Origin: Niebla homalea
Lineage: Eukaryota; Ascomycota; Lecanoromycetes; Lecanorales; Ramalinaceae
Direction of reading: 5' to 3'
Assembly: GCA_019925105.1 (NCBI GenBank)
Contig: JAHGAU010000029.1
Coordinates: forward strand, 372,001 to 436,000
DNA length: 64,000 nucleotides
The notes below the pieces were generated by a model. The model was not told the DNA's origin and did not search any database. It saw only the letters and a list, made by a program, of their open reading frames with translations. Within the stretch, counting starts at the first letter, position 1. Each line of letters starts with the position of its first letter. Of the stretch, positions 6,550 through 57,550 are shown piece after piece. The position numbers and the translations under genes were made by a program.

Positions 6550-9500
6550 TTACCTGCTCACCCACCTAAGCCCCCCCTGATCCATTCGTCCCCCAGCCCT
6601 CGTTCCTCTCTCAATCCCCCGCATAGGAACGTTGTGCGGAGGAATGAGGATCACGTTACTCCCCGGGTCTCGGTGATGACTAGGCTCACTGAGTCTCATA
6701 TTACCTTCTCCGTCGTCCTCACTGGGGTGGACAATCACCGAGGCCCCAATGCTGGCACTTCGTATCCGCGAACTGATGGGCAAGCTGTATTTGACTACGC
6801 CCCTGACAATGAGCTCGAAGTCGTATTGAAGAACACGCTCCCACCGCGCCGAGCCGCCTTCCTCCGTGTGGTTGCCAGGACGGGACAGTCGGACTTCTCC
6901 GACGGAGCCGAGTGAGCGATGATGGAGAGGAGAGGGATCAAAGATTAGAGGAGAGTCGAAAGCGAGGATGCGTCCGAGGAGCATCGTTTGTGAATCTGTG
7001 GCAGGGTCATCGTCCTCCGGATCGGTCCCTTCGTCAATGCCGTCTAATTGGTCCATCAGGTCTTCCGGAGTCTGAAGTGGTGACGGGTTTTGGTGTGATT
7101 TCTTGTGAGAGGATGTTGCAAAGCTTGAGTCAGGTTTCGCCACCGTATCAGGTGGTAGCAGGTGTTTGGACCGATGCTGATGACCACTGGCGAAAGGGGG
7201 TGCTATGTGACGAGACTTGGCGAAAAGGTTGATGTCAAGATCGGAGACCTGAATGGCGATGATGTTTGGGTTGATGGCACGCACTCTCAGATCCAGCATA
7301 AGTTCGGATTCCGAGGCTAAAACGTTCCGTATGTCTTTCACGTAGACATCAAATAGCGGCTTGGTGCATAATACTAAGATGATGACTATGGCGGCGATGA
7401 GAAGGGCAAGAACACTGGCGAGCGAGCTCAGAGCCGTGACCCGTCCACACAGACGGTGATCCCTTTCTCCATTCGAGTACATTTGCCGAACGCTACCTGG
7501 CAGTGGACGGCGTCGATTACGCCCGCTTCGCATTGATCCAATTAGCGGGGCTCTTTCGTCATCCGCCCCCTCGCCTTCCATGTCGTAGGAGGAGAGCTCG
7601 TCCGCTTTCCGAGAGCTTCCAGACATGCGTAATGAGTACGGGCTCTTTGGATTGTGTTTGGGAGAGCCTTGTTGAAAATGAGATGTTGCTGAACGTGGTG
7701 ACTTGACGACGCGGGGAAATGGGGATTCACTGTCGAATAACGAAGTATGTCCTCCACGGCCAAACTTGCCTATGTGATGTTGGTGAGCAGAGCCACCGCC
7801 TCGGGCGGTTTGGTGAGGCCCGCGGACGGTGCCATCAGCATCATCGGCATAAGTGATAGAGTTGTAGTTGTTAGCGAACTTCATGCTCTTCTTTCCAATA
7901 ATGCTATGATCTCTGTCAAGCCGGCCCTTTAGGCCATGGGGGTCAATCTGGCTCAGTGTGGAGGCTGTACTCGGTGTTCGTGAATGGAAGCGATGAGGGC
8001 GAGCTGATAACGGTTCCGGCGGATTCGATTCGTACACGAAAGTCTCTGCCGAGTCAGAAGAGTCTGCCTCGTCAACAGCACTGGCGACCTTGGCTTCGAA
8101 GATGTCTGCTTTTGAGGAGGCTAACCTCCCTCGAAAGGGCATTAGTCCTGAACTGAAGCGCCTTGGGGAGGCTGAAGAGTTTGTAGGAAATGAACGACGC
8201 GCAGGACTTCGCATGATGCTGCATGCATCCTTGGCTCTGCTTATGCTTAACGGACTCATGAAAGCGTCCTCTACAAGGCCCGGCCCCTGGATAGAATCAG
8301 GAGATCCCATCGGAGAAGAGTCCTCGGGTTCAGTAGAGGACATTCGAGAATGCGAGCGATAGTAATGAAATATTCGAGATAAGGACCTACCTGCTCCTGC
8401 GTTCGCAGAAGGCGCTTTCCGCACGACCTTCTTCTTCTCTTTCTTGGGTCGGATCGTCTCGGTGCTGGGCTTCCCTCGAAGGCTTCCTCCTGTGTCTGCA
8501 CGAGTTGGGCCTCCCGTTCCTCCACCAACAGCAACCTGTGGGATGGAGCTGACCGTCTCCGTCTCGACGGTCATGTTCTTGATCGAGGCTTCGCTTGCTG
8601 ATTTGCCTTTAATGGGTAGTTGTGTATAGGACTTCTTCGACTGGATCGTTGGCGGCTTGGAAGAAGACGGTACGGCTACCGTCTTGCTTGCCTCCTTGGG
8701 AGCATCCGCATTTCTTTGCGCGATACCCTTGCTGCCCGCGCTCTCGTTGCCGCTTTCGATTCTGGTCTTGCCTTCATTCGATAAAGCCTCCTCGATTGGA
8801 TTTTCTTCAATGCGCTCGGGTCGTTCATGCCCCGCACTCTTACTGCGATCTACTTGTCTGGACGCTCCAAGCGCAGGTGACGAAGGAGACCCGCTCTCTT
8901 GTACCGTTTCCAACATGGACCCGGAGCCACTCGTTCCACGAACAGGAGTCCGCATTCCGGCGCGTGCCACAGATTCTTCTTCTATAGAGTCAGGCTCGGC
9001 GGTCATGACAGAGGTGCGGGACGGACGATCAATTACTATAGCAGGAGTTGAAGGCGTTGATTGCGACTGCTCAGCCTTCCGGGCGGGCCCTATTACCGTT
9101 TTGGCTGTGGAGGTTAGGGCATTGGCTGGAGGAGGCGGCGAGCCGAGACGTGGAGTTCGAGGCGCTGATTTGGAGGCAGCGGTATTCGCTTTGTTTGATC
9201 TGTGCGACCTCGGTGTGTCGGCTGAGGCATCTTGTTGTGACGGGGCAGGGAGGGCAGCTGCGCCGGCGGCGGAGAGTGCTCTCTGAATGGCTGCAGCAGA
9301 GGGCACTGTCGGAAGACTGGCGCCAGAAGCGCTATGGGCACGCACCGGACTTAAGTCGTGGCTATTTTTTCTTGATCTTGCAGCCGAGCGGGTGCCCATG
9401 GACACAGTCGATTTGAAAGATGGTCGGATTGGGGACCCTTCTCGCGAGGCTTTGGGCGAAGTATTGGCTGAGGTAATGGCGGAGCGGAGTGGAGTAGTCA

Positions 9501-9699
9501 AGGCCCGTCTGTGATTCTTGGGCGAGGAGGTAGTACCAGTAGGGTGGGTGGAAGTCGTGGTACCTGAATCCGGCCCATTCTGGCTACCTTGACTATGTTG
9601 TACATGTGGCGCCTTTTGATGGGAGAGTTCTGCCCCAACATTTTCTTGTCCCCGGCCTTCCCCTGCTCTCGGCTCCTTTCCAGTGTCAAGCTCGGCCAT
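6550..9699 (-). CDS. vac7: Vacuolar segregation protein Vac7
   Basis: A 1049-aa frame matching fungal Vac7, the vacuolar membrane activator of the Fab1 PI3P 5-kinase complex that makes PI(3,5)P2. A long Ser/Pro-rich cytosolic N-terminus precedes the family-specific blocks ETIRPKKEKKKVVRKAPSA and ASSKADIFEAKVASAVDEAD. One membrane segment follows at about residues 755-778 (LASVLALLIAAIVIILVLC), then a conserved luminal domain (RVRAINPNIIAIQVSDLDI). Between the two N-terminal blocks lie 90 extra codons (8121-8390) that begin GTAGGT and end TTAG with an ACTAAT branch-like site. Removing them fuses the blocks exactly as in other Vac7 proteins as I recall them (NAGAASSKADIF), giving 959 aa. Because the segment is in frame and stop-free, both forms could exist. 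Confidence 0.88.
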   Translation of the reverse strand: MAELDTGKEPRAGEGRGQENVGAELSHQKAPHVQHSQGSQNGPDSGTTTSTHPTGTTSSPKNHRRALTTPLRSAITSANTSPKASREGSPIRPSFKSTVSMGTRSAARSRKNSHDLSPVRAHSASGASLPTVPSAAAIQRALSAAGAAALPAPSQQDASADTPRSHRSNKANTAASKSAPRTPRLGSPPPPANALTSTAKTVIGPARKAEQSQSTPSTPAIVIDRPSRTSVMTAEPDSIEEESVARAGMRTPVRGTSGSGSMLETVQESGSPSSPALGASRQVDRSKSAGHERPERIEENPIEEALSNEGKTRIESGNESAGSKGIAQRNADAPKEASKTVAVPSSSKPPTIQSKKSYTQLPIKGKSASEASIKNMTVETETVSSIPQVAVGGGTGGPTRADTGGSLRGKPSTETIRPKKEKKKVVRKAPSANAGAGRSLSRIFHYYRSHSRMSSTEPEDSSPMGSPDSIQGPGLVEDAFMSPLSISRAKDACSIMRSPARRSFPTNSSASPRRFSSGLMPFRGRLASSKADIFEAKVASAVDEADSSDSAETFVYESNPPEPLSARPHRFHSRTPSTASTLSQIDPHGLKGRLDRDHSIIGKKSMKFANNYNSITYADDADGTVRGPHQTARGGGSAHQHHIGKFGRGGHTSLFDSESPFPRVVKSPRSATSHFQQGSPKHNPKSPYSLRMSGSSRKADELSSYDMEGEGADDERAPLIGSMRSGRNRRRPLPGSVRQMYSNGERDHRLCGRVTALSSLASVLALLIAAIVIILVLCTKPLFDVYVKDIRNVLASESELMLDLRVRAINPNIIAIQVSDLDINLFAKSRHIAPPFASGHQHRSKHLLPPDTVAKPDSSFATSSHKKSHQNPSPLQTPEDLMDQLDGIDEGTDPEDDDPATDSQTMLLGRILAFDSPLIFDPSPLHHRSLGSVGEVRLSRPGNHTEEGGSARWERVLQYDFELIVRGVVKYSLPISSRIRSASIGASVIVHPSEDDGEGNMRLSEPSHHRDPGSNVILIPPHNVPMRGIERGTRAGGRMDQGGLRWVSR

Positions 9700-11081
9700 C
9701 TTAGGTGGATTCCCAGCGAGGCAACGTCATTATTTCGAACCTGGGCCAATCCTGGTTTTGGGTAAGCCGGGAATGGTGATCAAGCTGTTGACAACGAAGT
9801 GGAGGCCGGAAGGTGACTGCTGACTGTGTGCGGGCATTATGAAGAAAACGGGGCGGACCAATGAAGAATAGGATTCACGACACTAGGGGAGAGTGTGAGA
9901 GGAGAGTGAGATGTCGGAAGATGTCTGAGGTCCCCGAGGTCCCTTGTTCAGGTCGATTCAGGTACTGGGCCAAGAACGTGTGGCGCCCCAATTGGTCTTT
10001 TCTAAGCTCCTAATCTTGTCTGGTCTAGCGCCCTTGTGGCGTTCTACACTCTTCACCTTTTGACGTTTTCCCGGGCAAAGCCTAAAAGCATACGGAGGTA
10101 CATTGCCGATGGCCGTTGGAGTGTTGATTTCGATTGCGATGTAACTTATGCAAAGGCTGCCAATTGATTCTCAGGATTGTCTCCCGAATTGGTCTAAGGC
10201 TATCTTACAAGTGCATGGACGAGGCATCCTCGCCTTCCGCTGCCTTGTGTCTGACACTCCTAAGCGTGGAAAGAAACGGTCGTGGAGGTCCGGATTGTGG
10301 ATACAGAAATCCTCACGTGCAAGCCTTGCATGCTCCTTCAGAGCCATTCGCAGCACATGATTAGGCAGTATATGCCTGTGCATTTCTGTTGCCAAATGCT
10401 GCGACGAATCGACTACTCCTCTGCTATCAGATGACCGTATGGGAGATGCTCGGGCTGCTCGAGCACTCCTATGGCTCCTCACACCTCGTATTCGATCGGC
10501 GAGCATGTGGTCACAGACTTTCTATGATGCACGCCTGCAGCTCTGGATCTTTAAAATCTGTTTGCGGATTCCCCTGCATTCACACATATTGGCAAGGGAG
10601 AGATGAACATCCATGTCGGGAATAAACAGCCTCAGCAGGCACCTGCAATAAGACCCTATTGACTCTCAATGACAATGTTTCAAGTCAGGACGAAATGAAT
10701 CCTTCCAGTGAAAGGGAGCTTCTAATGGGGCGAGGCGATCACGCTCTGGCCCAGGTCTTCTCGCGATGGTCAATCACTTCTCGAATATAATATTTGTGCT
10801 ACCAGGGGCCAGAGTTTGAGAGATTTTATTTGCGATTCAAGGGCATTGAGGCCTAGGAATGTTCAATTTTATCATGTTCTCCATATCGCAGATTGTGCGC
10901 CGAAACAATGGCGGAACGCAATTCCAATGCGCGCGCGGTAGGTCGAGGTCATACAAAGAACATGTAGTGTACGACCTTGGGATACTTTACTTTTGTGTCA
11001 CAGCAACACTACTGATTGCCCACGAACTTCTTGCAACCCTCTTCGATTATCCTTCGCTATTGCACAATCTCACTCACTAAC
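9700..11081. other. Intergenic, about 1.4 kb
   Basis: Vac7 upstream region and the approach to the next plus-strand gene. Short frames of up to 111 codons have no recognisable domain. Nothing else seen. Confidence 0.4.
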
Positions 11082-29290: not shown

Positions 29291-30578
29291 TTGCTGCTCT
29301 TCTGGAACCATGATGATGTATGAAAGGAAGGAAAATTTGAAATCTAGGAGACGAGGCTTGCGTTGGTTGATGTTTTTATGCGATACTCCGATATGTCTCC
29401 TTCGAATCACGGAATTTTTCGCTATGGATCAAAGCTTACACACTAGATCCCCGGGGTTGGATCCTGAGGGTTCTTATCGTTCTTCAAGCTGTCAAGAAAG
29501 CCGACGCTGATCGACTTATCTTATATCTGACAACTTCATTACCGGACACCGAAGCTTGCTGAGTGATGCTGATTGACGATCATGCCTAATTACGGTTGGT
29601 CCGTGATAAGCCGGTGAGACCGGTCACGTGAGCGCGGCTCTTGATCAAAATTCTCTACCCGCCATCTCTAAGCGAGCTTTTTCATCACCACGACGTCGTG
29701 ATGAACCTCGATTTCGACTTTATCCGGGTAAACCTTTCAGCGACCGTGTTTAGATGAAATTGATGTTCAGAATTGCCTTTCTGAGTTAGATCAGCACCAG
29801 CTGAGGGTAGATTGCAACGCTAAATGTTCAAACGAGCGGCACCGTTCATCATTGGACATTACCAATAGAATAGCGGTTGCCGCTCGCTTGAAATTCACCT
29901 CGCAAAAGCTTTCACACATTGTTGCGGGAGACAGATGCGTCAAGCCTGATGTCAAGCTCGACGTCCTGCAAAGTGACCTCATGGTAGTAGGACCATGCAC
30001 TGGAATGATAAAGGTCGGATTCAAGTTCTTCACTCCACTTGGTCGCTTCATGGCTTCCCCCAGTAGAAGGTGCGAAGCAAGGCGTCTTTGCGATTCTCGA
30101 AGTGCTCAAGGGTAATAAGGCTGGTGACTCAGAAAATCATGCAGAATTACCGTTGCCACTGAATAAATCACTAAGTAATTGAGCAACTACGTCCCTGTAG
30201 AGGTTTAAATTGTGATTGAAACGCGTGGATTAAGGAGCTTAGACCATTTCACTGAGAACTAATATGAAAGTAGATGTTCCCGTCAGCTCGTTACGTCACA
30301 CTGCAGTGTCACCGAAATTTGTAGCCTTGTCGTTGTGGCTAAGCTTGTTCGAGGTAGAAGGTACCTACGTACCCACCCACGTGAGGAAAGGGATTTCAGG
30401 CAGCCAGTCCGTACTTCAAACGCACACAACCATTAATCGTCGACCCTGAAATGCGACAGCTTATGAGGATGCATCTTTTTGTCCGGAAGACTTAGATCGT
30501 ACAAGCTTGATAACGCTTGGAATCCTTGAACTCGTGGTATCTAAACGGTAGCAGGGCTCGAGGGCTTCCGCCGCTGTC
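29291..30578. other. Intergenic, about 1.3 kb
   Basis: No gene supported on either strand. It holds the promoter region for the HET-domain gene on its right. Confidence 0.4.
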
Positions 30579-32374
30579 ATGCGTCTACTGGACACGTCCA
30601 CGATTGAGCTCTATGAGTTCACCGAGAAAGGAACACCAAGATATGCGACATTGTCGCATAGGTGGGGAGACGAGGAAGTATCGATGCAGGAATTAAAGGC
30701 AATCACTGCTGAACCGCAATCGTCGCCAACCATTTGGGGGAAGACGGCTCACAAGCCGAGAGGTTTTATCAAAATCAAGAATGCATGCACCCAAGCCAAG
30801 CGATACGGTCTCGGATACATTTGGATCGATACTTGTTGTATCGACAAGACGAGTAGTGCCGAGCTTTCAGAGGCAATCAATTCCATGTATCAATGGTACG
30901 CCAGATCAGTGGTATGTCTTACACATCTCGCTGACATAGAGCTTCGAGCCACCGGAGATGCGGTCCCCAAGAAGTTTGTAGAGAGTGAGTGGTTTCGTCG
31001 AGGATGGACGCTACAAGAACTGTTGGCTCCTTGGCATATGATTTTTTACGACGTCGAATGGCGGGAAATTGGCACAAAGAGCTCACTGGCAAGCTACATT
31101 TCAGTCGCAACTGGGATCAAAGCTGTGTACTTACGTCATATGAGAGAGATTCGAGAGGCCATAATCGCAGAAAGGATGTCTTGGGCTTCGCTCAGGAAAA
31201 CAACAAGAACCGAAGATATTGCTTACTGTCTCATGGGTATCTTTGACGTGAACATGCCGCTGATCTATGGAGAAGGCAACAAGGCCTTCTTGCGATTACA
31301 ACAAGAACTAATCAGTAAGGTTAGTGACGTATCGATTTTTGCTTGGAGCTCATTTGGCCTATCGGGACTCGGCTATGATGTTGGCATGCTTGCACCCGAG
31401 CCTGCTCACTTTGCCGGTTCAGAGGACATCGTGTCTATACTGTGCGTCAAGCACCCTTCTCAATTACGAACCGTGGCTTGGCAATGACAGTGCTTTGCAG
31501 GAGGCTAAGACGAGATCCAGGCGGGTATGAGCTACCCTTTGCATGTGCCAGTGCGAAGAACAGGCAAGCGCCTCTCAAAATAAATCTTTCAGAAAGCATT
31601 CTTGGAAAGTTCACTCGAGTGAACCACCAGGATCGTCTCATGTTCTTCACCAACATAGACGTTGACGAATTTGCCACGAAAGATTTTCACGTTCCGCTAT
31701 CAGCAGATCCCCTATCAGATCTTAGTCTTTACTCGAGCAACATCGCCTATGGCCCGTATTTTATATTCCGCTTAAGTCTAGCAGCCCAGAAGAGTCTTCA
31801 CCTCCTTCAACTTGATGTAATGGGTTTTGAGCTAAAGTCTAAAATTGAATATCCCTCATTGTGGCAGCACGTATTTGGGCCTGGCGCTGACTTCCGGATG
31901 CACACACGTGGCTTTAACAGCATCGTGCTTCACTTTGGCTACGACAAAAGACATGAGATTTCTTTGACATGTATTGTCATTGACCCTGATTGCTTCAAGG
32001 TCATGCTACAAATCGGTACAATGCGCCCAGCCGACAATAATCAAGGGCATCGAAATGATGCGAGCTCCGTGAGGCATACTTCAACAGACATCAAATCAAA
32101 TACAGCCTTTACGCGGGGGAAGTCACAGGTCGGGGAGTATACTCCAGAGGATGTTGCGGTAGTTCAAACTCACCCGCACAGCAACATTGAACATTCTGCC
32201 TTTGGCAATTGCCAGTGGGGTCCACTTGGTGATGGAATGCGGCTGTGGGTCTCATGGGTCTCAAAAAGGATAACTTGGGAACCGAAAGAGAAGATCGGGC
32301 ACGATGACGATCCGGAGCAACACAACGTGGTCGATATAGATGTGACAGAGATTGATAGGCATGGGATATTCTGA
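30579..32374 (+). pseudogene. HET-domain gene with an internal frameshift
   Basis: Heterokaryon-incompatibility (HET) domain protein. The start MRLLDTSTIELYEF is the classical form. Domain motifs in order: YATLSHRWGDEEVS, GLGYIWIDTCCIDK, SEAINSMYQWYARS, RRGWTLQELLAPW, SWASLRKTTRTEDIAYCLMG and MPLIYGEG (about residues 20-240). The frame then reads GMLAPEPAHFAGSEDIVS. The expected next block, PFSITNRGL, is present at about 31455 but in another reading frame, which stays open for about 300 codons to 32374. No GT..AG pair joins the frames without deleting that block, so a one-base shift near 31430-31442 is the simplest reading. If real, it truncates the protein to 302 aa with the HET domain intact. 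Assembly error is the alternative. Confidence 0.8.
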
Positions 32375-37129: not shown

Positions 37130-38082
37130 TCACTCGCCTACTCTCTTCGCATCTATCAACCCGTCCTGACCATCGTCACAATAACCGAAATGATCGTTCA
37201 GTGGGATCTGCTCCACGCTGTCTCTGTAGCAAGCAGTATGCTCGGTGGCCCAGTCGCGCAGACGGTCCCAGTCACGACACTGTCTCAGCTGTCTGTCGCC
37301 GGCCGTGTTCTTCCCAAGAGTGTAGAGTAAGGTGTTGTCTGCATGACATTGTATGGACTGCAGACTGTCAGAAGAGCGCATGTACCTTGCAAAACGACAG
37401 ACTGACTTGTCTCAGAATGTCAAAACAGTGGCCAGAATGGGGCGGATGATACGTCAGGTTCTCGCCTCTCTCCAACTGCCAGAACGTTGTGCGGATGATC
37501 TTCTACGCACTTGCCGTGAGCTTCTGGGAGAAGGGGTTGAACGACAAGGAAGAATGTGGTGCTGAGCAGAGAGACTGAAGTCATACCAAGCAGTGGAGGA
37601 GATGATATGCCTCAACGAGATAGACTCTCTTCTGACCGTCGTTGGGAAGTCGCATAGACTCAGGCCAGTCATTTTGCTTTGCATACTGCCCTTCGATGGC
37701 GACCATACCGTGGGCTGGATTGATGGCATCCCAGAGCCGATCAGTCTCCGTGTCGTTCTTGGAGCTGTAATCGGTCCACCAGTCGAAGCGGACCAACTTG
37801 GTCGGCAATGGCTCGGTCATTGCTACATCTGCATCAGTATCATCCGTCTATTGGGTCTGATGTCCATTTACCAAGTCCAGGCATCCGCTGAACTTTCTTC
37901 GACATCAGCAACAAAGTTGCTAGATTTAGTAGGAGTAGTGATAGGATGAGAATGTTCTTCCAGGAAGTCTGTGGGCCACAAGACCCTCTCGTGGTATCAA
38001 GCTGTCGGCCATTGTCTCGATTGTCGCCATCAAGACTCGACCGCCACCGCAGGGGCAAGTAAGTGGGATTTTGACCCTCCAT
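37130..38082 (-). CDS. UstYa-family (DUF3328) oxidase
   Basis: Predicted 256-aa protein in four exons: 37872-38082, 37587-37822, 37407-37502 and 37130-37357. The introns are 49, 84 and 49 nt and all keep frame. Layout fits UstYa: short cytosolic N-terminus, one membrane segment (residues about 43-60, ILILSLLLLNLATLLL), then a domain with two HxxHC motifs. The first is HLLHC at 144-148 (in VYLVEAYHLLHC) and the second HSGHC at 171-175 (PPHSGHCFDILRQ). They are followed by SIQCHADNTLLYT and CRDWDRLRDWATEH, also typical. UstYa-type proteins catalyse oxidative cyclisation or halogenation in fungal RiPP and other metabolite pathways. Both motifs are complete, so the gene looks functional. A Kex2-repeat precursor lies at 54741. 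Confidence 0.9.
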
Positions 38083-38607: not shown

Positions 38608-40067
38608 ATGACATACGTTAATGGAGGAAGCGTGATTGCGATCGGTGTCTTATTCCCCATCCTTGGTATTGCAGGTGTAATTTCACGCTTCCATGTGCGA
38701 GTGACTAGAAAACAGTCACTGGGCGTAGACGACTGGCTATGTCTGGCAGCTTTGGTGAGTAACCGTACTCGACGCCCATCAGTAACACACTGCTGAGATG
38801 CTACGCAAAGCTGCTGGAAATCGGATGTGGCATCACCATGGTTATTGGTACGACGTGCTAAGGAAAAGCCGTCGTCACACACCACTGACCAACCTTTATT
38901 TCAGGCGCGTCCGGGCACGCCATCGGGCACCACTCTGCCCCACAAGATGACACTGCTTTCTTTCAAAGCCAAATTAAAACTCAGATCTTCTTAGAAAAGG
39001 TGTGGACAGGAGCCCCTTCTCTCAACCCTCCTGCGAAGTCCTGTCCTCAAAGGCTGACTCTTGAGAGCTAGTGCGAGTACGCGTTCGACATCCTGCAGGT
39101 CGCAGCTTTGGGTTTCGTCAAGCTTTCGATACTCTTCTTCTATCGAAGAATCTTTCGTGGGCGCATCTTCGACATTGTGTCCTGGGCACTGATCGCTGTC
39201 GTCAGCGCCTGGACAGTGGCGTTCTTCCTGGACAGAGTGTTCAACTGCCGAAACTTGTTCTCTGCCAATTGGGGCACAATCGGGGAACTGCTGACAGAGT
39301 GCTCCAAACCATTTGAACAGCTGCTGGCTCTTTCCATCTCGGACGTTGTGGTGGATGTTTTCATCCTCACACTCCCGGTCCCCTTCGTAAGTACCCCAGT
39401 GCCGCTGTAGCTTCGACTGCTGCTAAGGGATCTGCTTGAAAGGTGTGGAGATTGCAAATGCCTCTTCGTCGGAAAGTGGCTGTGTGTGGGATTTTCATGC
39501 TGGGAGCCTTGTAGGCGCCCTTGTACTCACCTATGCAAGATCAGCCTGACAGAGTCCGGACAGCGCGGTCACCGCTAGCATCGTACGAATGGTGATCTTC
39601 ATCGAAATATTCGCACCATCTCAACGTAAGTCACCCAATGCGATCGAGCACAGATCTGGACTTAAAAATCTAATGACCAAAACAGACTCGGTGAAAGATC
39701 CGACTGTCCTCGGGGTGCCCAGCACTGACGACATTGGTGCGTGGCTTTTGCTTAATCTAGACTTTATTTTAACAACAAAATTGCAGGTGTCGTGAGCATC
39801 TTCCTCTTCTGGGCAATGGTCGAAGTCGGCGTAGCTGTGATCGCGGCATCCTTGCCGACACTTCGTCCATTGTTTCAAGGGTTCTCACCCGAGAGCGTCA
39901 TTAATAGTCTTAAGAGTGTGGTCTCGCTTCGCTCCTTGCGCAGTGAATCTGACGGTCACAACGAGCATGAGCGCCGCAGCTCAACTTCCTCTGCCCGAAG
40001 ATTGAAGGGTTCGAATGGAGTTGAGGGCATGGAGTTGAGGCACAAGGAGATTGGGCCTGAAGTTTAG
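38608..40067 (+). CDS. Rhodopsin-domain (PTH11-like) integral membrane protein
   Basis: Predicted 351-aa seven-helix protein of the fungal rhodopsin-domain family. Eight exons: 38608-38754, 38811-38847, 38905-38999, 39072-39386, 39443-39510, 39564-39625, 39686-39736 and 39787-40067. All introns are 50-72 nt and keep frame. Family signatures: SLGVDDWLCLAAL, LQVAALGFVKLSILFFYRRI, FDIVSWALIAVVSAWTVAFF, SDVVVDVFILTLPVPFVWRL, KVAVCGIFMLGAFAVTASIV and WAMVEVGVAVIAASLPTLRP. The tail after the last helix is Ser-rich and cytosolic. Members include PTH11-like receptors, but most have no known ligand. No CFEM domain precedes it. It is divergent from the UstYa-family gene. Confidence 0.88.
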
Positions 40068-40940: not shown

Positions 40941-42960
40941 TTAGTGGACCGTGACCCTGAAGTCCCTCACCATCCTGTCCAATTTTTCGGTGTTGATCTC
41001 ATTGGCGAAGATCTCCGCATGCTTATCACGCAGGTGTTGCTTCATTGCATTCTCGTCCGGGTACTCGTACTCGCCTCTTTGGCAATCCTCCACCTGACAC
41101 TGATACCAAGTACCAAAACATGCCCTCTGCCATCGCTCCGGGTCCGCTCTGACTCTAGCGCGCCGATTCGCGACGAGATAGGCTGCGAATTTTCCCAACT
41201 CTTCCTGGACCTTGGAACGAAGGAGGTAGGCCTCGGTCTGCGTACGGAGTGTCTCGAGAGACTTGTTGCGGGGTTGGAAGAACGGAGGGATGCAGTTCTC
41301 GAAATTTCTCTCGGCCGAAATCTGAGCCGCAGGGCGCTTAAGCTGACTCGAGGCTGACTCATTTGACTGACGCGCGTGATCTCCGGCCAGTGCATGCTTC
41401 TTCTCACCGTCATCATAGTTTGACGAGTTTGAAGAACTGCCTCGAGAAATCCTGGACTTTGTGCGTCCGATGCATCGACCAAAAGCTATCCTTGTAGGAC
41501 CACGGCATTTCCATTCGTCGAGCTTCATACGATCAAGCCCGTTCTCGACATTCAGACGTTGATACATATATGACTCCTTGTCTCTTCTCCAATGGCGCTT
41601 CATATCTTCATGAGGGCCCTCTGGACTACTCGCCCATTTTTGTGCAAAAACCAGGTAGTGCAGGAATTTTCCAAGGCCGGCCCTGGAGATCTTTCTCACT
41701 CCAGTCTCAGAGTGAAAACGCTGGTCGATGCTCTTTCCAGTGCCAATGCTTAACACGCAGCCTAGACAGTCCCTGTTTTGATTGTTCATATTGAGAACCT
41801 CGAGGAAGATTTCAAGGCAAGGGTTATTGGCGCCGAAACCTCCATCCAGATACTTTAAGCCATCAATCGTCACTTCTTTGAAATACCCTGGAGCAGCAGA
41901 GGTCGCGCGAGCAACCTCCAAAATTGGAATGTCATGTGCTGGGCCTGGATTACTACCGAGAGGGGTGCCACCAAGAGAATGTTGTCTCCTTTTAAAATTC
42001 TTGTAAGTCCTGAAGAGATACGGCCTTTCTGTTCCGGATCCAGTGTTTTCCTGGTATGCCACCACAACGCTAGATCCCAGTCAGTTTCGTATAGCATATA
42101 TGTATTGGTACAACATACACTCTGCATCTGTTCTCATCGAAAGCGAACGTCTTGCCACCGGGAAAGGTGCCGATCTTCGGGACACGCCGATCGATCAAAC
42201 TTTGAATGACTGCTTCGAGCGTTCTATGATTGTACTTCTCTCTTGGGAACCAAAATGGTGATTTCAGGTGGAAAAGACGACTCTTGCCGAAAACCTTTCC
42301 GCCAAGCGTCTCGTACTCCTCTATGCAGTCATCAATATTCATTCGAAGTCGTCCGAGCATGATGCTTATGAGTCCTCCGGTACTCGTTCCAGCCATGTAA
42401 TCAAAATAATGGCACGGGAGGAATTGAGATGACTCCGTCGTTGTTGAGGAAAGCTCTGAGACTCCACTCACTGACCTTGAGTCCGTCGACGTTGCTTGAA
42501 CGGGATCTCTCGGATAATAGCTAGAGTCTGCCGGACCTTCCCACTCCTTATCACCAGGGGGCTGGTTCTTTTCAATATCCTTGATCTTCATCATAAGAGC
42601 TCGGATGATCAGTAAGGCTGAATAGCCTCTGATACCACCGCCATCTATAAGCCATGTCAGCCAAAGACCTCTCACATGACCGCTAATTGGCGCGAATTGA
42701 TGCTGACCTAGCGACAAGATGGCTTTTTGATCCCACGGTCTCGTCTGCTCAAAGGACATAGAATGTTCTGTTTTATTAGTTGACTGCCGACTAGGGCCTT
42801 GTAATGACTCGGAAGGATCTGCCTTGGCAAGTCTGCTTTTGAAAATGCGGCGCAAGAGCTTTGGTTGTTGAGACTTGGAAGCTCGACCAAAGGGTTTCTT
42901 GGGCGATCTTGCCGTTGGCGGAACGGTATCAGAAGTGGGAGACGTAGTAAAGTTCGACAT
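40941..42960 (-). CDS. Patatin-like phospholipase with C-terminal C2H2 finger
   Basis: Predicted 635-aa protein in three exons: 42708-42960, 42119-42644 and 40941-42069. The first intron (42645-42707, 63 nt) is in frame and stop-free; removing it turns WLIDGGGIRG into the canonical ILSLDGGGIRGYSALL. The second is 49 nt with a GTATGT donor. The patatin catalytic parts are complete: oxyanion GGGIRG (about residue 86), nucleophile elbow MAGTSTGGLISIML (about 169) and the aspartate in KYLDGGFGANNPCLEIF (about 333). A C2H2-like finger (YQCQVEDCQ, MKQHLRDKHAE) follows near 580-605. The N-terminus is basic and Ser/Pro-rich. Patatins hydrolyse acyl chains; in fungi many are linked to NLR-type immunity or signalling. 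The finger pairing is less usual. Confidence 0.88.
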
Positions 42961-43895
42961 GTTAACCGTAAACTTGAAACCAGTGGTCTCGCAACGCTGA
43001 TTGGGTGTTCGTGAAACTTTTCAAAATTCCAAGTGCGGCTGTCTCAGTCAAAAATTGGATGTAGGCTACGAATAGGGAGGGAACTGGAGCGAAGGATTGT
43101 TAATATGTTTGGGGCGTTCTCTCAGCCTTGCTGCTCTCTAGAGCCTTCGACGCGCCGTGGTGTGTGACTGAACGGGAGCGGTCTGCAGCCTTGAGATACA
43201 GCACCCAAGCATCTCGCTGAGCCTCCTCGAGTCAATTAGTATTCCAAGGACGAAAGCGCGACATGATTGGACGATGGTAAAGGTGTGGATTGCAATAGCG
43301 AAGATTTGCAACCACATGAAACGTGACTCGATATTTGCGATACTCCCTTTGAGGTTGTCCTCGTGCCTTGCGCCTTCACCTCCGAATCATTTTACCGTAG
43401 TGCGTGCAGCGTGCGTGGGGCACAGATCGGTCGTACAAGGCTGGCCAATACGAAGTTCTTCCTAAGCGCTCAGCCCCCCCACTGAGCAACATCTGGGAGC
43501 GTTCCAGGCTGTGAGGTCGCAATGCACGAAAATGGGGTTACATGCACAATCCAGTAGGTTCGCATGATCACTGTTCTCGGTGAGTGCCTTTAGGCAGCAC
43601 AGTGGGCTGATGGGCGCCAGGCCCTTACACAGCCCCTTCCCTACCACCGAATAAGCAGGAGATGCTATTTGCGTCCCTGTCCCTGTGCCATTTCACCTAG
43701 GCATTGATCCCTCGATTTCATCATTCTTGCAGGGTGAGCCTGCTGGCCGTGAAAGTATTTGAAGGCTGCTTTCGCAGCTATGTTGCTAATCACAATCAAT
43801 AGTTCCAATTTTTCACCTGAGAGCAAGTTTATCGCGATCAGTGAGTTCCTGCCTATAGAGTCTTCAAGTCCTGTTGCACACTTATTCTTTCCTCC
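42961..43895. other. Intergenic, about 0.9 kb
   Basis: Upstream of the patatin-like gene. No gene supported. Confidence 0.4.
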
Positions 43896-51729: not shown

Positions 51730-53550
51730 TCCCTTACCACAATACGGTCATCAAGCTCAAACGTATTCGAGCAACGATTGCCCCCGGGACCTCGAGTCAC
51801 CTTAGTTCAGACTTCCGTAATTCAAGGATCCCTACTTAACACATCGATTCAATATGTGCATACGTCTCAGCGTTCTGGGCGCTTGCAAAGTCCTTATCAA
51901 TGCAGTGCGAAGGCCGGGTCGTGCGTGAAATTTGACCTGCATTTCCCCCACAGTCTTCGAAGGACAAATAAAAGCCTCGGACAGACACCGGGATCCGTTT
52001 TGGTGCGGAAACTTGCAGCCTGATTGTCAGCCGGCATCAAGTATCCTGCTAAGGCCAGACACCATATGAGAATCTCTGAAAAGAATTTACACGCTGTCAA
52101 TTGAACCTCAATTCCGCTTGGCAAGGGGGGAGGCTTTTATGGAGAAATGGCTGGTTTGAACGAGCTACACTGTCTTGTAGATACTTGCAATGTCGCTCGC
52201 CAATACTCAAGACTGAACTTTGACGGCAGAAATTTATTCGGCAAGCATTTCACATGAACTACTACGCCGATCAATTTGGTCAGCGGGAGAAAGAGACAAT
52301 ACAAGTGCATACTGGTGAGTTGAACAATGTAAAGCCCACAACAGTCATGATAGCTCACACCAGAACACTGTATTGAGATTCATCGACAGAGTGTAATGTG
52401 TCGAGCCGATTCCACTCTCATCACATTCCACTGGGGTCAGGCTGTCAAATTACCTTAGCCTGATTTTACCTTGAAGCACACGTGCAGAGACTAGGAAAGA
52501 TTGATACAGTGGGCCAGTCAACATTCGATTGATGTTTTCGAAGAGGACATACTAGTACATCCTACACCAGGTATGTGGGTTGACACCCTGTTAAGAAGGA
52601 CTTCTACTAAACTCACCAGGGGCTTCATATCCTCGGGGCTTTCTGGAGGATCGGCCCCATCCATCCGACCTTCCCAGATAAACATTAGGTGCTTAGACAT
52701 GAAGTGACGACCGCGAAATCAAAGTATTGATCTTGGCTGTTTAGTCATAGACTGAATAGTATGAAGGAGAGTCAAAATCGTTGTCTCAAGGTAGGTCGGT
52801 GGCGTTGCAATAACTGGTGTCAAAATGTTGAAAAAATCTTTGTGTGAACGAGGGCGCATCGTGCAAGCGGCGATGGTGGGATCCTGTAGAACTACGTACT
52901 TGTGGAATCGATGAGGGCCATCATATGTACGAATCCCCATACACACCGACATATGGTGCGGACCTGCAGCAAGCTAATGCCGAAATATTTTCCGAATCAT
53001 CCTTGCAGCAGGTTCAGCAGGGATTGCAGGCGATGACGTCATGAGGACACAACTTGACTCAGTCCCGGGCCTCCCGTTCCGGCTTACTGTACCTCGGTAG
53101 CTCTGCTCATTATGACTCGCTTCATGCATGTGCAAATGACACACCTGCGACCTACATAACCATCTCCTTCCTTGATGCTCGGTTCGATTAGCAATTGGGC
53201 CAAAAGAAGCAGAAGGGGAGAGATCGGCGTCTTCAATGTGCTGATCAAATGCATTTGAATGTTGGCAACAATGGTGCATGTTTGCGTGCCCCAGAGGTGC
53301 AGCTTATTTGTGGGCCTTATCAGACTCAAATGGGCTCTCAGAGCTGAGATGCATCAGTGGGACATTTGAGGAAATGATCTATGCAAAATGACTGTGACAT
53401 ACCAGGCCAAGCTTGAGACAAGGTGGAGCGTCAGGAGAAAGAAAGAAATTCAGCCGAAGCCTGATTTTGGATTTAATTCCCCGCTGAGACGCTGACTGAT
53501 AATGGAGGCATCCCGAGGAAGCTCCATCGCAAGGTATTTGAGTTGATAAA
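51730..53550. other. No intact gene, about 1.8 kb
   Basis: Short frames only (up to 101 codons) on both strands, with no assignable domain. The surrounding relics suggest this is also decayed sequence. Confidence 0.4.
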
Positions 53551-54010: not shown

Positions 54011-54740
54011 GATATCTCGCAATTGTGCGTTGCTTGAGAATGGAACTCGATTATGAGGGGAGCAAGGTGAAGACTACTTTGTTAGACTTACCAATGAAAT
54101 GTCAGAGTAACGATATCCGTACAACCTCTTGGTTCGAATGAAAGATCGGAGCAATCATTGGTTGCACCGCTGAGCCGCTTCAATTGCCAATCCTGCTGAT
54201 CTTCGACGGCATCAAATCCTACGGGCTGTCGGTGTTACGCACCCACCGCATCTCAGTCAGCTAGACTTTGAACCCTACTTTGGGAATGATATTTAGCGTA
54301 TGATTTAAGCATACATTTATGCATACATCTTACTGGTGGGGTAGTCGACGCTGTAATTGGCCACTCCATTTCGCTCGGATTCATGAGATGCGCCTGCATT
54401 CTAAGCGTGCAGGTTCCACGCCCAACGGGGAAGCTAGTCCAAGCTCCAGGCAAGTCGAGACTGCTCGTGATCCGTTCTCTCATCGTCCTCTACAACAAGG
54501 TGACGAGAAAAGTTTCGTGAAAATCCTGCGACGTTTAGGTATTGAAATAAGGATTGATAATATACGGCCATTCATTTGGAGACAAAGAGGCTCCCGTCCC
54601 GTACACGTCCTTTAATTCTTGTCGTAATATCTTCACGTCTAGCCCGCTCTCCAGAAGAGACCACGATTTAGAACTAAAGCAGTGCTCAGTCAGCCATTTC
54701 GCACAGTATGAAACTCGCTTGAGACTTTTGCTACTTGATC
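54011..54740. other. Upstream of the repeat precursor
   Basis: No gene supported. An in-frame ATG at 54708 followed four codons later by TGA lies just before the chosen start of the precursor. Confidence 0.45.
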
Positions 54741-55017
54741 ATGGGAGGCGGCTTATTAGCCTTGCCCCTCTCCCTTGCTCCAGGTGAGGAATTGAAGTAT
54801 CCACTGTTTGATCACCCAAAGACTTACATTGCTAGGCGTGGAGAGCCTTCTGTCGCCACATAAACGCCATGACGCCGATGCTGCATATGAAGTGTATGAA
54901 AAGCGCAAGGACGCTGATGCTGCCACTGGGATATCTGAAAAGCGTCACGACGCGGATGCGGCCGACGGTGTTTATGAGAAGCGTCGCAACGCTGACGCTT
55001 CTCATGGGGTTCTCTAG
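54741..55017 (+). CDS. Kex2-processed repeat precursor, RiPP-like
   Basis: Predicted 74-aa protein in two exons, 54741-54783 and 54836-55017. The 52-nt intron has a GTGAGG donor, CTTAC branch-like site and GCTAG acceptor, and keeps frame. The N-terminus (MGGGLLALPLSLAPG) is a short hydrophobic, signal-peptide-like segment. After SPHKR come four tandem units: HDADAAYEVYEKR, KDADAATGISEKR, HDADAADGVYEKR and RNADASHGVL. Each unit has a constant spacer (x-D/N-A-D-A-A/S) and about four variable residues before E-K-R. Lys-Arg pairs are Kex2 sites. This is the architecture of fungal Kex2-processed repeat proteins, including ustiloxin-type (dikaritin) RiPP precursors and pheromone precursors. Two variable segments carry tyrosine, the residue cross-linked in dikaritins. 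Product and function are unknown; a pheromone-like peptide is the alternative. Confidence 0.7.
54868..55014 (+). repeat. 39-bp coding tandem repeat, 3.8 copies
   Basis: Units at 54868-54906, 54907-54945, 54946-54984 and 54985-55014 encode the Kex2-flanked repeats. The spacer codons vary at third positions, whereas the second half of each unit varies in amino acids. Confidence 0.85.
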
Positions 55018-55542
55018 TCACGTCAGTCTGTCAAAGACTTCCGCCGACTATGAAAATCCTTGGGAGTGCGTTCAAGAAGGAGCTGCTCCACATACAACAG
55101 GGGTGAGAAGGCTGTTATTGGGAGCCGGGCGATGCAAATGTGACCTTTAATCATGCACGAGCACAATCATGCATCATGATTGTTTGCTTCCACGTATCAA
55201 GTCAAAGCCTCTTAGTCAGTGGGCTGGCACATCTTCAGACTGCGTCTCTTGCCCACTTCAAAGTTTCAACCAGTATCTTGGGAGGAGAGCTTTCCTCTCA
55301 CACCGGTGTTCATTCCTTGTTGATCAAGCTAGGGATCTGTTTCATGCATGAGGACATCTAGCCAGCTTGGAGCTGCTTTATGGAGTACGATACTCAAGAC
55401 TCGCTCCAAGATCTCGGTACAGACAGGATGAGCACAAGTTGACTTCGTGATACCCAGCAGAGAAGTTAATTTTGCTTCGATGGTGGCTCGATTATTAAAG
55501 ACATTGAAGGAGAGTTGTCCACCCCAAAAAACAGGCCCAGAC
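55018..55542. other. Convergent intergenic region
   Basis: About 525 bp between the repeat precursor and the aminotransferase, which converge. Nothing recognised. Confidence 0.45.
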
Positions 55543-57550
55543 TTATACGTCACACACAGATAGGTCATCCACCTTGACTTCCCTCAATCTACGCTTGGCC
55601 ATCTCCAAAGCTTCATCTGATTTGCAAATACCAAATCTTAGGAAGTCCTCTCCAAGATGGGCGTCTTTATGGCAATAGAAAGCTATGAACCGTCAGTCCA
55701 GAATTTGCCTGTCTCTATGAGATTGCCAGACCTACCACTACCGGGGATCGAGGACACTCCGTGTTGGTGAATAAGGTACCAGCATACCCGATAATCGCGC
55801 GATTTCTCAGCTATCGAGGATGGGAAAGGATAGTTCGGAGCAATGACAATCGCCTTAATGTTGACGAACACAAAGTAAGCCCCTTGTGGTCTCACATACT
55901 AAGTCATGTATGACTCGTTAGGTCATGTTCATTCCTGTAGATGGTGCGCACGTTCAACGGTGATGAGAGCTGCCGAGGAGAAGGCACGCTTACCGGTAAC
56001 CTCAATTGATCAAGGACTTCACAAAAAGACACAACTTTACTCGTGACTGCCTTAAGATTCTGAGCCCAGAATCCACGCGAATCTGCCTCCCGCAAGCCAA
56101 TCGCCGCAGCTTCCTGTACCGGGCCTGCTGTCGTGTAGGAGAGAAGGATGTGTGCGCATATCACCGGCTCCACAAGATACGGGGGACCGATCACGAACCC
56201 GAGACGCCATCCTGTTGCATTGAAAAGCTTACCGATCGAGCTTACCGTCATTGTGTTTGCGGCTATGGCATCACTGATCGAAGCTACGTGCGTAAAGCTT
56301 GGCATGAAATGAATCCGCTCGTAGACCTCATCACTTAGAATAACAAGACAGCTCTCAACGCAAAGGTTTCCGATCGCCAAGAGCTCTTGTTTTGTATAGA
56401 CTTTGCCCAATGGGTTATGCCTTGCGAAGATAATGTGAGCAAAGATGGTCAATCAGTGAGGAAAGTGTGCCTCGTACGGATTGTTTAAGATCTATACGTG
56501 GAGTCAGTTGATGTCAATGAAATTTCTCAAATGCAATGATTACCAGCATCCTGCTTCTCGAAGTAATAGCATTCTTCAGGTCCTGAATATTCAGATACCA
56601 ATCATTGGCACAAGTCGTGCGAGCCTTGTGTTCTTCTGGTGGATGTAATGGGACGTGGCGAGCAACGCCGCCAGCCAATCCAACAAGGTGGGCGTATCTA
56701 TACAAATCTTAAATAACGATAGACGTCGAGACATCAATTTGGGTCTTACAGGTTGGAAACCGGCTCTATAAGGATCACTTCATCACCAGGCTCGATAAAG
56801 GCCATGATTGAGCTGAGAAGACCCTCAGTTGCACCCGTGGTCACGGCAATCTCTGAGTCTGGGTCGATGTGTCTGCCGTATTCAGGAGAGTAAGATTGAG
56901 AGAGACTTTCCTTGAACTGTGGCATCCCCTGCGTGAGTGTCAGTATAGTATATACCCTTGGCCTCTTTTGGTGTCGGAACACACCGAAACGGGTCCATAT
57001 TGGTTGTTCTCGACTTTGTGCAGAGCCGATTGATGCGCCGTAATAAGGAACTGGGGAGGATTGTATTCGCTGTTAACTCCTGTAAGCTATGAGAAGGAGA
57101 TCATTATATGTTGCATGTTACGTACATGAAGCCCGTGCCAAGATTAGATATTGGCTGTATCGGGGACGATGCTGCGGCTTCTGCAGACCACTGCCTGGAG
57201 CATTTTTTTTTATCAATAAGCAAATGACTTCTGGCGACCGATCTTCAAGCCGAGAATGCCTGGAGGCCATTTTGCAGTAAGGCTGAGGTGTCGGGAATGT
57301 GACTGAACAACATGTCTTACCAGACATTGCCGTGAACCACTCTCACCCTCTGAGCACACTGTAGCGGACCGGTTGTAGAGGAAATTGGTGAAAGTCGCTG
57401 CGTATCAGGAGGTGACGTATTGCAAAGCTCTACAAAGTCGTCCCTCTTCGAACCTGACAGCACCTCCACGATGTTGTCGCAGCTCCTTGACCAGGCGGCT
57501 TTGGAGATAAAAAGTCTCCTGATGTACCGTAGCCAGCCCAGGAACCACAT
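55543..57550 (-). CDS. Class I/II aminotransferase, kynurenine aminotransferase-like
   Basis: Predicted 486-aa PLP enzyme in nine exons: 57321-57550, 57126-57194, 56985-57069, 56750-56928, 56544-56697, 56478-56491, 55994-56420, 55736-55898 and 55543-55682. All junctions keep frame; exon 6 is only 14 nt. Motifs: NLGTGFIEYNPPQFL, NNQYGPVSGMPQFKESL, AVTTGATEGLLSSIM, NNPHNPLGKVYTKQEL (spliced), VILSDEVYERIHF, the PLP lysine in SSIGKLFNATGWRLGF (about residue 307), RPQGAYFVFVNIKAI and a C-terminal HLGEDFLRFGICKSDEA. The family covers kynurenine/glutamine transaminases and cysteine-S-conjugate beta-lyases. About 60 N-terminal residues (MWFLGWLRYIRRLFISKAA) precede the usual start and could be a targeting or membrane segment. 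It looks intact amid pseudogenes. Confidence 0.88.

What the first reader, a model, noticed from the sequence alone, without database searches (positions are those of the whole stretch)
54741..55017. Kex2-flanked repeat precursor with four variable tetrapeptide-like cores
A two-exon gene encodes a short secretion-like N-terminus and four 13-residue units, each a constant DADA-type spacer, about four variable residues, then E-K-R. Variation is concentrated in the putative core (YEVY, TGIS, DGVY, HGVL) while the spacer and Kex2 sites are kept. That is the reverse of what drift would give and is typical of precursor peptides. Four different cores in one precursor would give a mixture of products. 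Ustiloxin precursors also have a tetrapeptide core, but these core sequences match none that I know.
Basis: partly seen in the sequence, partly recalled or inferred. Interest (0 to 1): 0.92.

Follow-up and report, generated by a model that had tools for sequence, protein, structure and literature searches.

The report
Broken repeat-peptide gene in lichen fungus
A lichen-forming fungus carries the remains of a gene for a repeated secreted peptide beside a broken copy of the enzyme that would have modified it, so this looks like a dead member of a known family of fungal peptide clusters rather than a new working one.

Summary
The repeat is real. Exons 54741-54783 and 54836-55017 read as described: three 13-residue units ending EKR plus a 10-residue last unit, conserved DADA-type spacers, diverged cores; the matching scan found nothing in 9.6 Mb of Markov sequence. 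First, a likelier start, ATG at 54708, lies in the same frame and runs into TGA after four codons (MKLA*), so the secretion signal looks broken. Second, about 2.1 kb upstream lies a UstYa (DUF3328) gene, the cyclising enzyme of ustiloxin-type peptides, with at least three in-frame stops and a lost motif histidine; an open relative exists. The host is a lichen-forming Lecanoromycete. The same genome has four open repeat precursors, with less variable repeats, 0.7-2.0 kb from other UstYa matches. Best reading: a decayed UstYa-associated Kex2-repeat locus of known kind, the four cores probably reflecting relaxed constraint. The main rival is a live gene using the downstream ATG. The four open pairs may matter more: the lichen RiPP survey PMC12048977 reports no repeated precursors in its two conserved clans.

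The parts
54708..54740 (+).
   Evidence: in four sibling precursors ATG to the AAP site is 20-21 residues with a basic residue within the first five; here it is 25 codons (stop included) to LAP from 54708 and 14 from 54741
54741..54783 (+).
54784..54835 (+). Putative intron, 52 bases, GTGAGG...TAG
   Evidence: not tested with RNA
54836..55017 (+). Exon 2: pro-part GVESLLSPHKR and four repeat units between dibasic sites, stop at 55015-55017
52075..52599 (+). UstYa (PF11807, DUF3328) pseudogene: pieces 52075-52176, 52230-52314 and 52364-52599, putative introns 52177-52229 and 52315-52363, in-frame stops at 52102-52104, 52456-52458 and 52492-52494, first histidine of the first HxxHC motif lost, second motif (HTEHC) kept only if intron 2 is spliced; the N-terminal part of the domain (profile 1-98) was not found
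37238..37805 (-). Second UstYa-domain gene with both HxxHC motifs, about 14 kb from the relic and 17 kb from the precursor; not shown to belong to this locus
55907..56982 (-). Aminotransferase class I/II pieces, next recognised gene downstream; role in the locus unknown

Best explanation
This is a decayed locus of the UstYa-associated Kex2-repeat (ustiloxin-like) kind in a lichen-forming Lecanoromycete. Originally a two-exon gene made a precursor with a signal peptide on exon 1 and four Kex2-flanked units on exon 2; the precursor would enter the secretory route, be cut after KR, trimmed, and its Tyr-bearing cores modified by the UstYa oxidase encoded about 2.1 kb upstream. Shown here: the repeat, the dibasic sites, the past constraint on the spacer, the adjacent UstYa remains, the in-frame stops in UstYa, and the stop between the first in-frame ATG and the rest of the signal-like stretch. 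Inferred: that 54708 was the ancestral start, that the two genes worked together, the splice sites, the Kex2, Kex1 and oxidase steps, and that the diverse cores reflect relaxed constraint.
For: UstYa domain at 52075-52524, E 4.4e-18 and 1.6e-18 by hmmscan with X at stops. A 238-residue relative, P0121, matches with E 1.2e-44, 53% identity over 94% of the query; the piece 52105-52179 is 19/25 identical to it and four further pieces align; at the three stops P0121 has residues, and it has both motif histidines where the relic has lost the first. The first intron I assume lies directly behind HxxHCL; 14 HxxHCLV sites occur in the window and the 20 UstYa stretches, 11 of them with GTA or GTG there (the V codon always begins GT, so this is support, not proof). 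Precursor: MKLA*. Controls: L014, L016, L018 and L019 carry open precursors with 4, 4, 8 and 6 repeat units (the scan counted 3 in L016), 0.7-2.0 kb from a UstYa match, each with a signal-like stretch upstream. Their units show pN 0.11, 0.09, 0.03, 0.07 at pS 0.63, 0.43, 0.60, 0.12, against pN 0.25, pS 0.74 for the window gene over all columns (in L014 and L016 a few codons past the stop are counted in). The truncated window start has a lower hydrophobic peak (1.98) than all four siblings (2.08-2.69) and no basic residue. No second copy of the precursor was found in the genome.
Against: The repeat frame itself is intact and its spacers are conserved, so decay would have to be recent. The downstream ATG has a fair context (A at -3, G at +4) and its hydrophobic peak is only slightly below the lowest sibling. 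From 54708 the distance to LAP is 25 codons, not the 20-21 of the siblings. High synonymous divergence between units is also seen in three of four open siblings (pS 0.43-0.63), so it is no mark of decay. A second UstYa with both motifs lies in the window. The second UstYa exon piece was not matched to P0121 (wrong frame). No reads were available to exclude an assembly error, and no relative's DNA at this locus.
Confidence: 0.8

Rival explanations
1. A living precursor that uses the downstream ATG at 54741 with a short signal sequence, its peptides being released linear or modified by the second UstYa of the window or one encoded elsewhere; four cores then give a small mixture, as described for epichloecyclins.
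For: Intact frame from 54741 to 55017, spacer conservation, fair start context, hydrophobic peak of 1.98 against 2.08-2.69 in the siblings, second UstYa with both motifs. PMC9233826 passages describe epichloecyclins A-F from imperfect repeats of one GigA precursor.
Against: The first ATG (54708) also has A at -3 and is followed by a stop after four codons, so scanning ribosomes would mostly be lost; the truncated start has no basic residue near its N-terminus, unlike the four siblings; the nearest UstYa is broken.
Confidence: 0.13
2. An alpha-pheromone-like or other unmodified Kex2/Ste13 peptide gene that merely lies near a dead UstYa.
For: XA dipeptides after Kex2 sites are the STE13 motif of alpha-pheromones (PMC9769878 passages); DADA fits that type.
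Against: In units 1 and 3 the DA dipeptides are one residue out of register after KR; the cores lack the Trp/Cys of filamentous alpha-pheromones (recalled). PMC7329392 states that genes for almost all mating-factor KEPs, with three exceptions, have no DUF3328 neighbour (abstract), and that DUF3328 counts peak at the position next to KEP genes (section).
Confidence: 0.05
3. A chance open frame or an assembly artefact.
For: Single genome, no transcript; no homologue of the precursor in the protein collection (83 candidates, none at E <= 0.1).
Against: 0 hits in 9.6 Mb of Markov sequence, strong synonymous bias in the spacer, UstYa neighbour.
Confidence: 0.02

Closest known systems
Kex2-processed repeat proteins with a DUF3328 neighbour (Umemura 2020, PMC7329392)
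   Same: At least three repeats of eight or more residues between dibasic sites; DUF3328/UstYa gene close by; repeat sequence without a homologue found (2560 of 7878 KEPs there had none; abstract and sections 6 part 1, 7 and 11 read)
   Different: Signal peptide start apparently broken; UstYa neighbour is a pseudogene; units vary more than in the four open siblings
Dikaritins (ustiloxin, phomopsin, asperipin-2a)
   Same: Repeat precursor beside a UstYa gene; two of four cores hold Tyr next to Val
   Different: Cores differ from one another; no tyrosinase match on this contig; adjacent UstYa inactive by sequence
Epichloecyclins (GigA)
   Same: One precursor with non-identical cores giving a mixture (passages of PMC9233826)
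   Different: Nonapeptide cores there; no sequence comparison was made; GigA is expressed in planta, this gene has no evidence of expression
UstYa clusters R1 and R2 of lichen fungi (PMC12048977)
   Same: Lichen-forming host and UstYa signature gene
   Different: That survey found no conserved repeated regions in the clusters of those two clans (sections); here repeats are present beside UstYa genes. Whether any UstYa gene here belongs to R1 or R2 was not tested

Membership tests
KEP (criteria of PMC7329392, Methods) | Signal peptide by SignalP | tested here: inconclusive
   No SignalP on hand; in-frame stop after MKLA, weak remainder from the second ATG
KEP (criteria of PMC7329392, Methods) | Three or more repeats of 8 or more residues between KR/KK/RK/RR, none over 100 residues | tested here: met
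   Three units bounded on both sides and a fourth bounded by the stop; the paper's own repeat-scoring code was not run
Dikaritin | Adjacent UstYa/DUF3328 protein with two HxxHC motifs | tested here: not met
   Adjacent gene has three in-frame stops and a lost motif histidine; the one with both motifs lies about 17 kb from the precursor
Dikaritin | Tyrosine in the repeated core | tested here: inconclusive
   Tyr in cores YEVY and DGVY, none in TGIS and HGVL
Dikaritin (five-gene definition as quoted in PMC12048977) | Tyrosinase in the cluster | tested here: not met
   0 of 11 PF00264 matches in the genome lie on contig C29
Dikaritin (five-gene definition as quoted in PMC12048977) | Methyltransferase in the cluster | tested here: inconclusive
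   O-methyltransferase domain near 34.1-34.6 kb, 20 kb away
Dikaritin | Side-chain cross-linked peptide product | not testable with these tools
   Needs LC-MS
Alpha-pheromone precursor | XA/XP dipeptides in register after the Kex2 site | tested here: inconclusive
   Out of register in units 1 and 3; in register in units 2 and 4 only if cut after RK or RR
Epichloecyclin precursor (GigA) | Homology to GigA | not tested
   No GigA sequence was fetched

The most novel reading that the evidence does not exclude
The gene is alive from the downstream ATG: a lichen symbiont that has kept the processing spacers but let, or driven, the four cores apart, making a small mixed set of peptides from one precursor with the help of the second UstYa.
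Probability: 0.1. Interest if true: 0.6.

Novelty: new member of a known kind. Interest (0 to 1): 0.35.

Why it matters
As a dead locus it is modest: it is an example of a UstYa-type peptide cluster lost in a lichen fungus, and a warning that conserved spacers with variable cores are not by themselves a sign of a working gene. The by-product matters more. Four open repeat precursors beside UstYa genes in one lichen-fungus genome give concrete candidates of the kind of precursor that the lichen RiPP survey PMC12048977 could not find in its two conserved clans.

Tried and rejected
Rfam scan of the window: 0 matches at gathering scores. Repeat finder on DNA 54500-55300: no direct repeat family. 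Homologue search with the spliced open frame from 54741: none; not read as absence from fungi in general, since short two-exon genes are often missed, but the collection does hold many lichen fungi. My first repeat scan missed the window gene because it merged KRK and KRR; corrected. In one search the second UstYa exon was cut in the wrong frame, so its alignment there is not used. I first took all eight stops in the UstYa match as lesions; two putative introns explain part of them, and I count only the three that lie inside conserved pieces. The automatic exon models are tied for L014, wrong for L019 against my reading by eye and absent for L016, so the comparison of signal stretches rests. 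Repeat-induced point mutation as the cause: TpA/ApT of 0.58 and 0.63 around the two genes against 0.60 for the window gives no sign of it.

Full report
Where it is. The window is contig C29:372001-436000 of an unnamed 50.57 Mb, 52-contig assembly. Psora is in Lecanorales, Lecanoromycetes. So the host is most likely a lichen-forming Lecanoromycete; the species was not determined.

The observation. The two exons, the intron and the repeats are in the sequence as described. Three units have 13 residues and end EKR; the fourth has 10 and ends at the stop codon; the last units of the four sibling precursors also lack a closing KR. Synonymous differences between units are near saturation (pS 0.75 in spacer plus EKR, 0.73 in the core), while amino-acid changes are rarer in spacer plus EKR (pN 0.14) than in the core (pN 0.47). 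So the frame was translated and the spacer was held by selection for a long time. The scan that detects this gene gives 0 hits in 9.6 Mb of order-2 Markov sequence. The repeat is no accident.

In the four open precursors of the same genome the signal-like stretch from ATG to AAP is 20-21 residues long with a basic residue within the first five positions and a ten-residue hydrophobic peak of 2.08-2.69; for L018 and, with ties, L014 the best exon model puts an intron a few codons behind it. Counted from 54708 the window's stretch to LAP is 25 codons, one of them the stop, with lysine at position 2; counted from 54741 it is 14 codons, without a basic residue and with a peak of 1.98. The simplest reading is a signal peptide broken by a stop. 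That 54708 was the ancestral start is an inference.

A search for UstYa (PF11807) gives 33 matches in this genome, one of them at window 52075-52524 on the same strand (E 4.4e-18; hmmscan 1.6e-18). Two putative GT-AG introns (52177-52229 and 52315-52363) explain some of the stops in that stretch. The first would lie directly behind HxxHCL, where 14 sites in the window and the 20 fetched UstYa stretches read HCLV, 11 of them with GTA or GTG. Three stops remain inside conserved pieces (52102-52104, 52456-52458, 52492-52494), and the first histidine of the first HxxHC motif is lost. A relative, P0121 (238 residues, precomputed UstYa domain), reads through the same positions. The neighbour is a pseudogene. 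No other Pfam family reached E 0.05 between 49.15 and 54.15 kb. Downstream is an aminotransferase class I/II gene; further upstream are a PLP-dependent enzyme (47.5-49.1 kb), a HAD hydrolase, a patatin, a fungal rhodopsin domain, a second UstYa with both motifs at 37.2-37.8 kb and an O-methyltransferase domain at 34 kb. No tyrosinase match lies on the contig: 0 of 11.

Siblings as controls. The 33 UstYa matches fall in 20 stretches outside the window, all fetched at 9.9 kb each, plus two places inside it; the tool calls such counts lower bounds. In 4 of the 20 stretches the scan finds a Kex2-repeat precursor: L014 (ELYPAPDLGRIKVDD type, 4 units), L016 (FEADGMLAVGNDAESSYATKP type, 4 units of which the scan counted 3), L018 (EVEEGPIAYPDAY type, 8 counted) and L019 (EPQENDLQYKYGKYAEE type, 6); an antisense frame of the L019 repeat also scored and is taken as an artefact. 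In 16 of 20 no precursor was found within the stretch. The four lie 0.7-2.0 kb from the nearest UstYa match, the window gene about 2.1 kb from its relic. In L014 and L018 the middle of the unit is fixed and the ends vary, the reverse of the window gene. Over all columns pN between units is 0.11, 0.09, 0.03 and 0.07 in the siblings and 0.25 in the window gene. The window gene is thus the exception among the five.

How it most likely worked and where it stands. By analogy with ustiloxin-type clusters: entry by signal peptide, Kex2 cut after KR, trimming, and oxidation of Tyr-bearing cores by UstYa. Two of four cores hold Tyr. As it stands the probable start and the oxidase are both broken by sequence, so I think the locus is dead, and that the diverged cores reflect relaxed constraint. 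The main rival, a live gene from the downstream ATG, is not excluded: its hydrophobic peak is only slightly below the lowest sibling and its frame is clean.

Compared with what is known. The architecture meets the repeat criterion of KEPs but the signal peptide is in doubt; the dikaritin criterion of an intact adjacent UstYa was tested and not met. So I do not file it as a working dikaritin but as a decayed locus of that kind. One precursor with several different cores is already described for epichloecyclins (passages of PMC9233826). For lichen fungi, PMC12048977 (abstract and sections 8, 11, 22, 23 read, plus passages) reports widespread UstYa genes but no conserved repeats in the clusters of its two clans. 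Searches with terms for pseudogenised UstYa clusters or lichen repeat precursors (listings, 20 of 40, 5 of 5 and 12 of 15 papers shown; passages of PMC7099791 and PMC6941272) showed me no report of either; subscription papers are not held.

Noticed in passing
L014:7018-7427 (+), L016:3841 downwards (-), L018:2969-3503 (+), L019:7229-7734 (+): Four open Kex2-repeat precursors, each 0.7-2.0 kb from a UstYa match, in the same lichen-fungus genome.
   Followed up: partly
window 37238-37805 (-): Second UstYa-domain gene with both HxxHC motifs; the scan found no repeat precursor in the window other than the one at 54.7-55.0 kb.
   Followed up: partly
window 39072-39392 (+): Fungal rhodopsin domain in a frame read with X at stops.
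   Followed up: no
window 40944-43020 (-): Patatin-like domain split over two overlapping frames; intron or frameshift not decided.
   Followed up: no
window 55907-56982 (-): Aminotransferase class I/II split over several pieces downstream of the precursor; intactness not decided.
   Followed up: partly
window 30552-31484 (+): HET (heterokaryon incompatibility) domain.
   Followed up: no
window 6553-9726 (-): Vac7 frame with an unnamed 89% identical relative in the protein collection, so a close relative of the host has been sequenced.
   Followed up: no
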